Shown here one piece after another: positions 6,655 through 9,083 of a stretch of 9,083 nt of DNA. The stretch's first letter is position 1. Each line of letters opens with the position of its first letter. The position numbers and the translations under genes are program-made. The DNA comes from a bacterium (GTDB lineage Bacteria; Blakebacterota; Blakebacteria; Blakebacterales; Blakebacteraceae): the NCBI GenBank assembly GCA_025774205.1, contig JALGWK010000180.1, forward strand, positions 1-9,083. Direction: 5' to 3'. The notes beneath the pieces are model-generated. The model ran no database searches and was not told the origin of the DNA. It saw only the letters and a list, made by a program, of their open reading frames with translations.

Positions 6655-6870
6655 CTACCCAAACGATATCGGGCAGGAATCCATCTTACTCTTCTGCTTG
6701 AATTCAGCAGACTGGTCCAATTTAGACAGCAGATCTTGATCAGGTTGGTGCTTAAGTACTTCAAGTTCTCCTCTATCGAACCAGATTGATTTGCATGACG
6801 GGCAAACATCAATGGTGATGCCGTGTTCAAATTGCTCGTGTAGCTCGATTTTACAATTGAGACATTCCAT
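6655..6870 (-). CDS. Small zinc-ribbon protein (transcription factor zinc-finger, TFIIB-type family)
   Basis: This 71-residue protein has MECLNCK (C3, C6), CPSCKSIWFDRGELEVL (C23, C26) and a charged helical tail. Two CxxC knuckles with a following WFDRGEL are the signature of the bacterial zf-TFIIB domain family. These small proteins are widespread, with no agreed biochemical role. The start ATG at 6868-6870 has an AGGATGA-type ribosome site 7-9 bases upstream. Its 5' end lies only 12 bp from the first attC-like site, and it reads away from that site. It is either the cargo of a first, incompletely bounded cassette or a resident gene next to the array edge; I found no attC to its left. Confidence 0.82.
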   Translation of the reverse strand: MECLNCKIELHEQFEHGITIDVCPSCKSIWFDRGELEVLKHQPDQDLLSKLDQSAEFKQKSKMDSCPISFG

Positions 6871-6882
6871 ATCTATTCATCC

Positions 6883-6979
6883 TGCTGATGTCCCGCGTGT
6901 CAGCTTCAGAGGGAGAGTATAGGATACCTTGTTGGATTAGTCATTTGCTGCCGATGTCAGCTGCACGCGCTTGTTAGTC
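6883..6979 (+). repeat. attC-like site 1 of integron cassette array
   Basis: This 97-bp imperfect palindrome closely matches the sites at 7678 and 8371 along its whole length. Shared blocks include GTCAGC near 6899, AGAGTATAGGA near 6914, CCGATGTCAGCTGCA near 6951 and GCGCTTGTTAG at 6968-6977. The right box is GTTAGTC (6973-6979) with the crossover between 6973 and 6974. The left box is degenerate (TGCTGAT instead of RYYYAAC), so this site marks the left edge of the recognisable array and its own cassette has no clear left boundary. Confidence 0.75.
6916..6944 (-). promoter_or_regulatory. Possible leftward promoter inside attC site 1
   Basis: On the minus strand ATGACT (6939-6944) and TATACT (6916-6921) are separated by 17 bp, giving 4/6 and 5/6 matches to sigma-70 boxes. 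Transcription would start near 6909 and read into the zinc-ribbon gene with a leader of about 38 bases. The AGTATA word is also conserved in attC site 3, so it may simply belong to the attC. Confidence 0.3.
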
Positions 6980-6993
6980 GTTCTTGGAGCGAA

Positions 6994-7326
6994 CTACATC
7001 GAATTCAGCAAAGATTCTATCGCCGACCTGAGTGGTGGAAGGTTTCTCTGGATTGCGGAGAACACCTCGTCGGTATCTATGCCAAGGTAGTCGTGGGCGA
7101 GGACGTTGCGAAAACTAGCAAGTGCACGCCAATCAATATCGGGGTGCTGGGCTTTAAGGTCTTCAGATAACCGTTGAGTTGACTCTGCCATTACTTGGAG
7201 TCGTCGAAGAGTTGCATCCTTTGCCATTCGGGAAGCCTGAAATGCAGTTCGGCCTTCGGCTGTGTACTCCTCGACCGACTCAATGCATTCAAGAATGTGC
7301 TGAAGGTTGACGCGCTGATCTTTCAC
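6994..7326 (-). CDS. hepT: HEPN-domain toxin HepT-like (DUF86)
   Basis: This 110-residue all-helical protein has the HEPN catalytic motif RNVLAHDY (R73, H78, Y80; pattern RX4HXY). HepT is an RNase toxin. In characterised systems its partner MntA silences it by attaching AMP to the motif Tyr, which is present here as Y80. The start is GTG at 7324-7326, overlapping the antitoxin stop as GTGA, so translation is coupled and the antitoxin is made first. The length is normal for the family and no residue of the motif is missing, so the toxin looks intact. It lies antisense to the direction of the cassette attC. Confidence 0.9.
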   Translation of the reverse strand: MKDQRVNLQHILECIESVEEYTAEGRTAFQASRMAKDATLRRLQVMAESTQRLSEDLKAQHPDIDWRALASFRNVLAHDYLGIDTDEVFSAIQRNLPPLRSAIESLLNSM

Positions 7327-7610
7327 AGCGGTACTGCCTCTGACATTACTTGTTCTCGAAGGAGGTCGTGTAAGCCCTGCTCAGTTACAACTTGTACGGA
7401 GCGCCCGAGTAAGTCCTCAAGGTCAGCAACTAACCCGCCGGGAAACCAGGGACTGGTCTGTCCGCTGATTGTAACCAGAAGGTCCACATCACTATCGGGT
7501 CCTGCTTCGCCTCGAGCTACTGAACCGAAAACACGAATACTGTCTACGCCATGGCGACGAGCGATAGCCATGATCTCGGCTCGGAACTCTTCAAGTAATT
7601 CAATGCCCAA
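7323..7610 (-). CDS. mntA: MntA-like minimal nucleotidyltransferase antitoxin
   Basis: This 95-residue protein has the nucleotidyltransferase signature GSVARGEAGPDSDVDLLV (G29-S30, D41, D43), an exact GSX10DXD. It belongs to the small MNT group that acts as antitoxin by transferring AMP from ATP to HepT. The start appears to be TTG at 7608-7610, with GGAGG eight bases upstream and no better in-frame ATG; the first helix begins directly after it. It overlaps hepT by four bases. An extended -10 element lies about 30 bp upstream. Confidence 0.9.
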   Translation of the reverse strand: MGIELLEEFRAEIMAIARRHGVDSIRVFGSVARGEAGPDSDVDLLVTISGQTSPWFPGGLVADLEDLLGRSVQVVTEQGLHDLLREQVMSEAVPL

Positions 7611-7677: not shown

Positions 7678-7774
7678 GACTAACGTCCTGCGCGTCAGCT
7701 GCAGAGGCAGAGTCTAGATTACCTGATTGAGTTGTTCAATTCTCGCCGATGACAGCTGCATGCGCTTGTTAGGC
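7678..7774 (+). repeat. attC-like site 2 of integron cassette array
   Basis: This 97-bp site has left box GACTAAC (7678-7684) and right box GTTAGGC (7768-7774), which fits GTTRRRY. The arms share GCGC, CAGCTG and GCC/GGC blocks in inverted order (GTCAGCTGCAG on the left; GATGACAGCTGCATGCGC on the right). The central spacer is variable. Recombination would be at 7768/7769. It is very similar to site 3 and clearly related to site 1. Confidence 0.85.
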
Positions 7775-7812: not shown

Positions 7813-8376
7813 ATGCGCAACAAACCACTGACATGGGTTGGTTCGTCTCTGGAGGACCTTCAGGCATTTCCGGAGGATGCCAGGCGGATGGCTGGGTATC
7901 AGTTACGTAAGGTCCAATCCGGATTGATGCCGGACGACTTCAAACCCATGCAAAGTGTTGGAGCAGGAGTACAGGAGATCCGGATTCGAACAGGCAGAGC
8001 ACATAGAGTCTTCTACATCGCCAAATTCGAAGAATCAATCTATGTGCTCCATGCTTTTGAGAAGAAGAAGGAGGTCGGTATGGACACGAAGATGCGACGG
8101 GGTAAGGCGAATGTATTTCAGGACCTGGGATTTGATCCCGAGGAATCTGAGAATCTCCGCGTGCGTGCCGATCTCATGATTGAGCTGAGTAGACTGATCG
8201 AGAACAAGGGCTGGACTCAGGAGGAAGCCGCCGAGATCATGGGCGTCACGCAACCTCGAATCAGTGATCTCGTTCGCGGGAAGATCGATCGGTTCAGCAT
8301 CGATTCACTGGTCTCGATGCTTGGCAGTGCTGGGATTAAGGTTCGGGTGACGACGACGGTGAAAAGTGTTGCCTAA
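7813..8376 (+). CDS. Fused HigB/RelE-like toxin and HigA-like HTH antitoxin
   Basis: This is one 187-residue frame. Residues 1-88 match the Gp49/HigB-type toxin (WVGSSLEDLQAFPEDARRMAGYQL; VGAGVQEIRIRTGRAHRVFYIAKFEESIYVLHAFEKKK). Residues 90-187 match its usual separate HTH antitoxin (NVFQDLGFDPEESENLRVRADLM, then WTQEEAAEIMGVTQPRISDLVRGKIDRFSIDSLVSML). Normally these are two genes, and the toxin continues past HAF-KK with a helix ending near residue 110. Here that helix is missing and the antitoxin follows in frame. The toxin is a ribosome-dependent mRNA-cutting RNase fold; the antitoxin represses the operon. The start ATG 7813 has no ribosome site and the promoter suggests a leaderless mRNA. 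An ATG at 8080 (M90) with AAGGAGGT before it probably yields free antitoxin. The TAA lies in the attC R'' box. Confidence 0.88.
   Translation: MRNKPLTWVGSSLEDLQAFPEDARRMAGYQLRKVQSGLMPDDFKPMQSVGAGVQEIRIRTGRAHRVFYIAKFEESIYVLHAFEKKKEVGMDTKMRRGKANVFQDLGFDPEESENLRVRADLMIELSRLIENKGWTQEEAAEIMGVTQPRISDLVRGKIDRFSIDSLVSMLGSAGIKVRVTTTVKSVA
8080..8376 (+). CDS. higA: Probable separate HigA-like antitoxin from an internal start
   Basis: The ATG at 8080-8082 lies in the same frame as the fused gene. It is preceded by AAGGAGGT with five bases between GGAGG-type core and ATG, a near-perfect ribosome site. Translation gives 98 residues beginning MDTKMRRGKANVFQDLGF, the normal length and start for antitoxins of this family. 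The HTH lies at about residues 45-70 (TQEEAAEIMGVTQPRISDLVRGK). The ribosome site inside a coding frame is strong evidence that this product was originally, and may still be, made alone. That would give antitoxin excess over the fused form. The alternative is that only the fusion is made and the site is a relic. Confidence 0.65.
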   Translation: MDTKMRRGKANVFQDLGFDPEESENLRVRADLMIELSRLIENKGWTQEEAAEIMGVTQPRISDLVRGKIDRFSIDSLVSMLGSAGIKVRVTTTVKSVA

Positions 8377-8473
8377 CGTCCTGCACGACAGCTGCAGAGG
8401 CAGAGACAGAGGCAGAGTATAGGACACCTGGCTGAGTTGGCCACTTTCCGCCGATGACAGCTGCATGCGCTTG
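8371..8473 (+). repeat. attC-like site 3, interrupted at its crossover point by an insertion sequence
   Basis: The left box is GCCTAAC (8371-8377), a perfect RYYYAAC. The site follows sites 1 and 2 to GCGCTTG ending at 8473, where TTRRRY should follow but AAACTAA stands. It contains a 12-bp tandem duplication (8395-8406, 8407-8418) absent from the other two sites, so its full length would be 109 instead of 97. The lost right box lies presumably on the far side of the inserted element, outside the window. Confidence 0.8.
8395..8418 (+). repeat. 12-bp tandem duplication within attC site 3
   Basis: CAGAGGCAGAGA (8395-8406) is followed directly by CAGAGGCAGAGT (8407-8418), 11 of 12 identical. 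Sites 1 and 2 have a single unit at this place. It lengthens the left arm spacer next to the palindromic stem. Confidence 0.8.
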
Positions 8474-8481
8474 AAACTAAT

Positions 8482-8549
8482 GGAGGCCCCCTGTCGAGCC
8501 TACGGAGTAGGCTCTGGGGTGCTAGAAACCTCAAAACCAGGAGGCCTCC
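8482..8549 (+). promoter_or_regulatory. Structured leader of the transposase gene that can hide its ribosome binding site
   Basis: GAGCCTAC (8496-8503) and GTAGGCTC (8507-8514) form a perfect 8-bp hairpin with loop GGA. CCCC before it and GGGG after it (8516-8519) can extend the stem. GGAGGCC (8482-8488) can pair with GGCCTCC (8543-8549). The latter is half of the palindrome GGAGGCCTCC (8540-8549) that contains the transposase ribosome site. This could limit transposase translation from read-through transcripts. Confidence 0.5.
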
Positions 8550-8550
8550 A

Positions 8551-9083
8551 ATGCGATTCTACACTCAGTCTCGTCAGTACTACTGCGGAATCGATCTGCA
8601 TACCCGCTGGATGTATATCTGCATTCTCTCTCAGACAGGTGAGATCGTCTACCACAAGAATCTACCCGCCTCCGAGGAATCCTTTCTCAAAGCAGTTGCC
8701 CCCTTCCGCGAGGGACTGGTCGTCGGTGTGGAGTGCACCTTCACCTGGTACTGGCTCGCTGATGTTTGTGCCCGGGAAGGGATCGAGTTCGTCCTGGGCC
8801 ACGCCCTGTACATGCGGGCCATCCACGGCGCCAAGGTCAAGAACGACCGGGTGGATTCGCACAAGATCGCTGCCCTTCTGCGGTCCGGGATGTTTCCGAT
8901 GGCCTATGTCTACCCACGGGAGATGAGAGCCACCCGGGACCTGCTGCGACGACGCACATACTTTGTCCGGCGTCGAGCTGATCTGCTGGCCCACATCCAG
9001 AACACCAGGCATCAGTACAATCTGCCGGATTTTGAATCAACCATTTCCCGTAAAGCGAACCGGGATGGGCTTGCCGAGCATTT
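8551..9083 (+). CDS. IS110-family transposase, N-terminal part (DEDD recombinase); 3' end outside window
   Basis: From the ATG at 8551, 177 codons are open to the window edge. The RuvC-like DEDD domain is clear: YCGIDLHTRW (D14), VGVECTFTWYWLAD (E61) and KVKNDRVDSHKIAALL (D99, D102). IS110-family enzymes are RNA-guided recombinases that need a bridge RNA encoded beside the gene. The C-terminal transposase_20 domain with the catalytic Ser is not in the window; the full protein should be about 320-400 residues. GGAGG at 8540-8544 is six bases before the ATG, within a palindrome. The gene reads in the same direction as the attC sites. It is open so far, with no frame break, so the element may be active. 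Confidence 0.92.
   Translation, partial: MRFYTQSRQYYCGIDLHTRWMYICILSQTGEIVYHKNLPASEESFLKAVAPFREGLVVGVECTFTWYWLADVCAREGIEFVLGHALYMRAIHGAKVKNDRVDSHKIAALLRSGMFPMAYVYPREMRATRDLLRRRTYFVRRRADLLAHIQNTRHQYNLPDFESTISRKANRDGLAEH

What the first reader, a model, noticed from the sequence alone, without database searches (positions are those of the whole stretch)
8466..8490. Insertion sequence placed exactly at the attC crossover point
Seen: attC 3 matches its two sister sites up to GCGCTTG at 8473, and the very next base differs; that G is the integron crossover base. Seven bases later TGGAGGCCCC begins, and an IS110-type transposase follows. Established: a subgroup of IS1111 elements targets attC sites, and IS110-family enzymes use bridge RNAs to choose targets. 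Inference: this element's bridge RNA reads the conserved attC right arm, so the IS exploits the one sequence common to all cassettes and may lock cassette B in place.
Basis: partly seen in the sequence, partly recalled or inferred. Interest (0 to 1): 0.8.

Follow-up and report, generated by a model that had tools for sequence, protein, structure and literature searches.

The report
RNA-guided IS parasitising integron attC sites
A transposable element of the RNA-guided IS110/IS1111 kind has jumped into the one conserved box shared by the gene cassettes of this bacterium's integron, and its relatives in many phyla carry a guide RNA that spells out that box, so an RNA-programmed element has specialised on integrons; it hit the R'' end of the site, not the crossover end.

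Summary
The sequence facts hold: attC3 matches its two sister sites up to G8473, then an IS110/IS1111-type element begins (8474) and runs off the contig. Its right half is absent from the assembly, so I tested about 40 relatives from many phyla. Nearly all insert after ..TG; all 23 with a right end resume with TT; an empty Vibrio cassette repeat confirms precise insertion. A non-coding region downstream of the transposase gene carries a bridge/seekRNA-like RNA: its target loop is closed by a covarying helix (14 of 15 pairs with double changes), its left guide covaries with the left target (p=5e-5), its donor guide with the right end (22/23), and its right guide, GYCTAAC, is the attC R box. One claim fails: arm signatures, neighbouring genes and the Vibrio empty site put the element in the R'' box (RYYYAA|C), inverted to the cassettes; R', the crossover, is intact at 8371-8377. 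The known attC-targeting element ISPa21 hits the same end in the same orientation, but about 9 bp away, with a transposase only 19% identical. This is therefore a separate attC-targeting lineage, uncharacterised as far as I could search. Effects on cassette mobility are inferred.

The parts
6884..6979 (-). attC1 (cassette orientation on the minus strand; R'' side at 6973-6979, degenerate R' at 6884-6890)
   Evidence: repeat of attC2/attC3; arm asymmetry: R''+AA on the right arm, extra base
7678..7774 (-). attC2, intact; R'' GCCTAACAA at the right end, R' ACGTTAGTC at the left end
   Evidence: folds with R box paired
8371..8473 (-). attC3 remnant: R' (crossover box, GTTAGGC on minus strand, 8371-8377) intact, R'' cut after CAA by the IS
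   Evidence: R-box pairing lost in the predicted fold
8474..8480 (+). IS left terminal extension AAACTAA (7 bp); with the preceding TG it would form the -10-like part of a circle-junction promoter
   Evidence: same place and form in about 35 relatives; TTGAC near right ends
8481..8491 (+). left subterminal inverted repeat TGGAGGCCCCC
   Evidence: matching GGGGCCTCA/GGCCTTA repeat near the right end of relatives
8481..8550 (+). transposase leader: left sTIR predicted to pair with the Shine-Dalgarno region (AGGAGGCCTCCA, 8539-8550) around an inner hairpin
   Evidence: conserved in 34 elements, own pairing 594 vs 463 permuted, p=2e-4
8551..9083 (+). DEDD transposase/recombinase gene, N-terminal 177 aa (GIDLH, VECT, KNDRVD motifs at residues 13, 60, 97), cut by the contig end
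   Evidence: full-length relatives also carry Transposase_20
7813..8376 (+). cassette B: RelE/HigB-like plus HTH antitoxin-like domains in one ORF
6994..7610 (-). cassette A: MntA-HepT-like toxin-antitoxin pair, reading in cassette orientation
6655..6870 (-). small zinc-ribbon-like ORF starting 14 nt beyond attC1, consistent with cassettes on the minus strand
   Evidence: zinc-ribbon reading by eye only (two CxxC motifs)

Best explanation
The feature is the left end of an IS1111-architecture insertion sequence that belongs to a broad lineage specialised on integron attC sites. Shown in relatives by comparison: a long non-coding region downstream of tnp encodes a bridge/seekRNA-like RNA with a target loop (5' right-target guide GYCTAAC, 3' left-target guide NNNTTG, closed by a covarying helix of 10 or more bp) and donor guides matching the element's own ends (GATNAGTTTC for the left end, CCTCAATAXGTG for the right end). 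Inferred: the DEDD transposase loaded with this RNA pairs the right guide with GTTRRRY and the left guide with the bases before it, and swaps strands at a TG core. It inserts the circular element exactly at TG|TT of the R'' box (cassette orientation RYYYAA|CAA), directly behind the stop codon of the cassette gene and inverted to it. U and G at the degenerate guide positions would let one RNA read most GTTRRRY boxes by wobble; the TTG side tells R'' (RYYYAACAA) from R' (CGTTRRRY). Insertion splits R'' from the rest of attC, so the R box cannot form, and the neighbouring cassettes should become immobile as units until the IS leaves.
For: Window and sister-species copy at the same base of different attCs. 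TG before the left end in 34/35, TTG in 24/35. Right ends ..TATAXGTG|TT in 23/23. Empty site in Vibrio attC repeats, continuous across the junction TTTG|TTATGTG. Minus-strand cassette ORF ending within 60 nt of the right end in most, stop codon exactly in R'' in 7. Left guide against left target: 84 vs 67 matches, p=5e-5, best of 180 offsets. Donor guide against right end: 156 vs 135, variable column 22/23. Left-end guide column 13/18, p=4e-4. Right guide against right target: Watson-Crick p=0.017. Target-loop helix: 14/15 pairs with compensatory changes, own 569 vs 350 permuted. L043 and L005, 84% identical, carry different guides; L043's match its own target (CATCATG/CATCATG, GATAAC/GTTATC).
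Against: The window's own RNA and right end are not available, so guide and target cannot be compared for this very copy. Right targets vary little, so the right-guide test is weak (with wobble p=0.09). Some members (L009, L043, L023/L024) have flanks that do not fold as attC, so the target is a short linear sequence and not attC itself. Permutation tests do not remove shared ancestry, which matters most for donor guides. Most loci are MAG contigs. HigB-HigA in cassette B reads against the inferred cassette orientation.
Confidence: 0.85

Rival explanations
1. The element sits at the true crossover point (R', G|TT) in cassette orientation, and exploits the integrase cleavage site itself.
For: G8473 followed by non-attC sequence looks exactly like G|TT; cassette B's HigB-HigA ORF reads on the plus strand and its stop overlaps GCCTAAC at 8371.
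Against: All three attCs carry R'' marks (AACAA, extra base in the L arm) on the IS-side arm, as known class 1 attCs do on R''-L''. The sister copy's neighbouring gene starts 15 nt beyond the other arm. In Vibrio and in most relatives the flanking genes run towards the IS.
Confidence: 0.07
2. It is an ordinary member of the described IS1111-attC group (ISKpn4, ISPst6, ISPa21, ISPa25).
For: Same kind of element, same attC end, same orientation against the cassettes, RNA downstream of tnp.
Against: ISPa21 transposase is 19% identical and falls outside the clade (99/97 support); ISPa21 inserts about 9 bp deeper, between R'' and L''. ISKpn4 and ISPst6 themselves were not read here.
Confidence: 0.08
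3. The junction is a cassette boundary made by the integrase: the IS-like gene is simply carried by the next gene cassette, whose first bases replace TTRRRY.
For: The break falls at an attC box, where integrase also makes breaks.
Against: A cassette would begin with TTRRRY; here and in all relatives the next bases are the IS end ATACTCA/AAACTAA plus sTIR, and TTRRRY-like bases reappear after the right end. The Vibrio empty site shows insertion without any loss.
Confidence: 0.02
4. The guide-target matches only reflect common descent of elements and of attC boxes; the enzyme recognises attC as a folded hairpin, as integrase does.
For: Right targets and right guides are nearly constant; attC folds are present at many sites.
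Against: The left guide tracks flanking DNA that is not inherited with the element (p=5e-5, only at the predicted offset); several sites are not attC folds yet fit the guides (L009, L043).
Confidence: 0.06

Closest known systems
IS1111-attC group (ISPa21, ISKpn4, ISPst6, ISPa25)
   Same: IS1111 architecture, insertion at the R'' end of attC, inverted to the cassettes (ISPa21); RNA from the downstream NCR finds the target (ISKpn4, ISPst6; literature)
   Different: transposase only about 19% identical to ISPa21 and outside its clade; insertion exactly in R'' (RYYYAA|C), about 9 bp from the ISPa21 point; different ends; found here mainly in environmental phyla and marine Gammaproteobacteria
IS110 bridge RNA systems (IS621) and IS1111 seekRNA (ISEc11)
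   Same: DEDD plus Transposase_20 enzyme, RNA with separate target and donor guides, top-strand guide 5' of bottom-strand guide, dinucleotide core at both junctions (literature)
   Different: the right-target guide is a stand-in for the attC R'' box; the non-coding region is long (about 400-570 nt between tnp and right end) with an extra conserved module of unknown role
Group IIC-attC introns
   Same: RNA-guided mobile elements that insert in R'' of attC at TTGT/T, opposite to the cassettes (PMC7923331)
   Different: unrelated retroelement mechanism; its point lies one base further on; this IS uses TTG|TT and a protein recombinase

Membership tests
IS110/IS1111 DEDD transposase superfamily | N-terminal DEDD (RuvC-like) domain | tested here: met
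   PF01548 1.9e-13 in the window protein; GIDLH, VECT, KNDRVD motifs
IS110/IS1111 DEDD transposase superfamily | C-terminal Transposase_20 (serine) domain | tested here: inconclusive
   beyond the contig end in the window; present in four full-length relatives
IS1111 group | long non-coding region downstream of tnp, short left end | tested here: inconclusive
   window: left end only 77 nt (met), right side missing; relatives: about 400-570 nt downstream
IS1111 group | subterminal inverted repeats of 11-13 bp with 7-bp left and 3-bp right extensions | tested here: inconclusive
   left extension 7 bp met; repeats in relatives are shorter and imperfect (AGGCC core, roughly 7-9 bp) and the right extension is 3 or 5 bp depending on where the TG core is counted
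IS1111-attC group (ISPa21 type) | insertion into attC of gene cassettes | tested here: met
IS1111-attC group (ISPa21 type) | same insertion point as the group | tested here: not met
   ISPa21 lies about 9 bp deeper than RYYYAA|C; only one group member could be read
IS1111-attC group (ISPa21 type) | transposase related to the group | tested here: not met
   about 19% identity to ISPa21; separate clade with 99/97 support; long branches
bridge RNA / seekRNA-guided element | RNA with guides complementary to target and donor | tested here: inconclusive
   met in 18-23 relatives by covariation; the window's own RNA is off the contig; no expression data
integron attC site | R''/R' boxes RYYYAAC/GTTRRRY with asymmetric L arms | tested here: met
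   attC2 and attC3 (attC1 degenerate at one box)
integron crossover (R') insertion | IS located in R', between G and TT | tested here: not met
   IS-side arm is R''-L''

The most novel reading that the evidence does not exclude
A second, ancient IS1111-type lineage spread over several bacterial phyla evolved, independently of the ISPa21/ISKpn4 group, a guide RNA whose wobble-tolerant GUYUAAC segment is a stand-in for the attC R'' box, and so became a general RNA-programmed parasite of integron cassettes. It converges on the same TTGTT as group IIC-attC introns and lands safely behind cassette stop codons.
Probability: 0.65. Interest if true: 0.68.

Novelty: new variant of a known kind. Interest (0 to 1): 0.56.

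Why it matters
It shows RNA-guided recombinases settling on the only sequence that all integron cassettes share, in a lineage separate from the one known in clinical integrons. Guides and targets can be read straight from natural copies, including an 84%-identical pair whose guides differ, so target choice by bridge-type RNAs in the IS1111 branch becomes directly testable. It also gives a concrete way in which environmental integron arrays may be frozen, since the R box of the invaded attC can no longer form.

Tried and rejected
Extending the contig: no right end, C-terminal tnp domain or RNA motif in the own MAG; the sister genome G017 gave no match with the full-length relative. Crossover-point reading: rejected after arm-asymmetry, gene-orientation and Vibrio empty-site checks. 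Module II of the RNA (GAGCC..CTAACTGG..TTGAATGG) as the donor loop: its flanks do not match the ends; the donor guides lie 3' of it. R'' against right-flank pairing as proof of the split attC: two perfect cases (L062, L073) but not significant as a set (p=0.22). Strict attC scan of loci: few hits, neighbouring attCs confirmed only in L006, L007, L015, L064, L069. Viral contigs and phages: no close relatives. intI on contig C400 has no matching attC on that contig, so the array cannot be oriented by its integrase. The original IS1111-attC paper (Tetu and Holmes 2008) is not in the library.

Full report
Observation. The window is contig C470 of a 527-contig MAG from a very small phylum (only four genomes held). 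It carries three attC sites (6884-6979, 7678-7774, 8371-8473). The third is identical to the second over ..CAGCTGCATGCGCTTG and then changes from TTAGGC to AAACTAATGGAGGCCCCC. A DEDD transposase gene starts at 8551 and is cut by the contig end.

Other copies. One scan of genome contigs gave 14 relatives. Searches of their genomes, of Acidobacteriota and Planctomycetota genomes and of plasmids brought this to about 40 elements. L017 most likely lies in G001, the only other genome of the same genus (inferred from matching sizes of the phylum's genomes). It has a near-identical left end at the same base of a different attC: two independent insertions. Left flanks end in TG in 34 of 35 cases, TTG in 24. 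By a simple shuffle test 19 of 34 left flanks fold as attC (p<=0.05), and several more carry the arms by eye. Right ends read ..TTGAC..GGCCTTATAXGTG and are followed by TT in 23 of 23 cases (strict TTRRRY in 11 of the 22 with six bases; the others mostly TTAGNN or TTATNN). In L013, L064 and L070 one extra or changed base stands at the TG. TG at both junctions behaves like the core dinucleotide of bridge-RNA elements (literature). Joining the flanks of the Vibrio campbellii copy L028 gives a sequence that runs without a break through a repeat present up to 40 times per record. The best empty site (L099) matches both flanks, with no base lost or gained at TTTG|TTATGTG.

Which end of attC. In class 1 cassettes of known orientation the R'' box is followed by AA, L'' carries an extra base, and R' is preceded by CG (GTCTAACAATTCGTTCAAGCCGACGCC...GGCGCGGCTTAACTCAAGCGTTAG). 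In the relatives the arm touching the IS has RYYYAACAA and the extra bases, and the far arm has AACG. All three attCs of the window show the same asymmetry with the IS side as R''. Gene order agrees: in L017 a minus-strand ORF starts 15 nt beyond the far arm; in the window the zinc-ribbon-like ORF starts 14 nt beyond attC1 and MntA-HepT reads the same way; in Vibrio the annotated genes around the repeat run against the IS orientation. Of the elements with a right flank, most have a minus-strand ORF ending within 60 nt of the right end, seven of them with the stop codon exactly inside R''. The IS is thus in R'' (RYYYAA|CAA), inverted to the cassettes. The crossover box R' of attC3 is at 8371-8377 and untouched. 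The HigB-HigA ORF of cassette B reads the other way; it is the one dissenting sign. A DNA fold pairs R''/R' in attC2 but not in attC3, so loss of cassette mobility is plausible but not shown.

The RNA. The region between tnp and the right end (about 400-570 nt) has conserved blocks in 20 elements. RNAalifold finds one consensus helix of 15 pairs, 14 of which have compensatory changes. An independent test pairing each 5' arm with its own or another element's 3' arm gave 569 against 350, p=2e-4, the smallest value possible there. The helix closes a loop with GYCTAAC on its 5' side, complementary to GTTRRRY, and NNNTTGATTGG on its 3' side. The six bases ending in TTG or ATG match each element's own left flank: 84 matches against 67 expected, p=5e-5, with the predicted register the best of 180 offsets (z 5.2, next 3.4). 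The right guide pairs 5-7 of 7 positions; since targets hardly vary the permutation test is weak (p=0.017 Watson-Crick, 0.09 with wobble). Two elements of one genome, L005 and L043 (84% identical), carry different guides; L043's match its own target on both sides (CATCATG with CATCATG; GATAAC with GTTATC). L005's left flank is cut by the contig edge.

Donor guides. Further 3', CCTCAATAXGTGTTTGG matches the right end TATAXGTG; X is A, G, T or C and agrees in 22 of 23 elements. GATNAGTTTC matches the complement of the left end ATACTNAT; the variable column agrees in 13 of 18, p=4e-4, or 11 of 16, p=0.003 without two hand-shifted rows. Shared ancestry of guide and end may inflate these two tests; it matters less for the left target, which is not inherited with the element.

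Lineage. Full-length relatives have both IS110 domains. In a 30-row tree the family is one side of a branch with 99/97 support, apart from ISPa21 and IS4321 (long branches are a caveat). ISPa21, read from plasmid pME-1a, interrupts attC_smr about 9 bp further in, between R'' and L'', also inverted to the cassettes. The literature says that ISKpn4, ISPst6 and ISPa25 share one attC target and that their seekRNAs match it; their exact point is not in the text I could read. Group IIC-attC introns insert at TTGT/T in R'', again opposite to the cassettes, a striking convergence.

Mechanism and confidence. Shown here by comparison: precise insertion at TG|TT of R'', an RNA with covarying target and donor guides in relatives, and a lineage distinct from ISPa21. 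Inferred: that the window copy has the same RNA, that the RNA does the targeting, that wobble pairing (U for R, G for Y) lets one guide read most R boxes, and that the hit attC is dead. Not available: the right half of this copy.

Side result. In 34 elements examined the left sTIR can pair with the Shine-Dalgarno region of tnp (own 594, permuted 463, p=2e-4; shuffled maximum 395), which suggests a translation brake; whether transcripts from the circle junction escape it is unknown.

Noticed in passing
window 8474-8550 and leaders of 34 elements: The left subterminal repeat is predicted to pair with the Shine-Dalgarno region of tnp around an inner hairpin, covarying between elements: a likely translation brake.
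   Followed up: partly
window 7813-8376: Cassette B encodes a RelE/HigB-like (Gp49) and a HigA-like (HTH_37) domain in one ORF, an apparently fused toxin-antitoxin; fusion or assembly error not checked.
   Followed up: no
window 6994-7610: Cassette A is an MntA-HepT-like toxin-antitoxin pair, so two neighbouring cassettes both carry toxin-antitoxin modules.
   Followed up: no
L027 4560-4610: The right end of the Catenovulum element is tandemly duplicated (GACCTCGGGGAGGCTCATATGTG twice), perhaps a trace of a failed or second insertion.
   Followed up: no
alignment A1, module GAGCC..CTAACTGG..TTGAATGGGACGG: A second conserved module in the RNA resembles the target loop and has its own CCCUC/GAGGG-type arms, but matches neither end nor target; role unknown.
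   Followed up: partly
G719 (L072, L074, L077): Three near-identical copies of a deeper-branching relative (49% identical) lack the family's left-end and RNA motifs and may use another target.
   Followed up: no
G000:C400 4214-5158 (L018/L096): Integron integrase gene of this MAG on another contig; no matching attC on that contig.
   Followed up: partly
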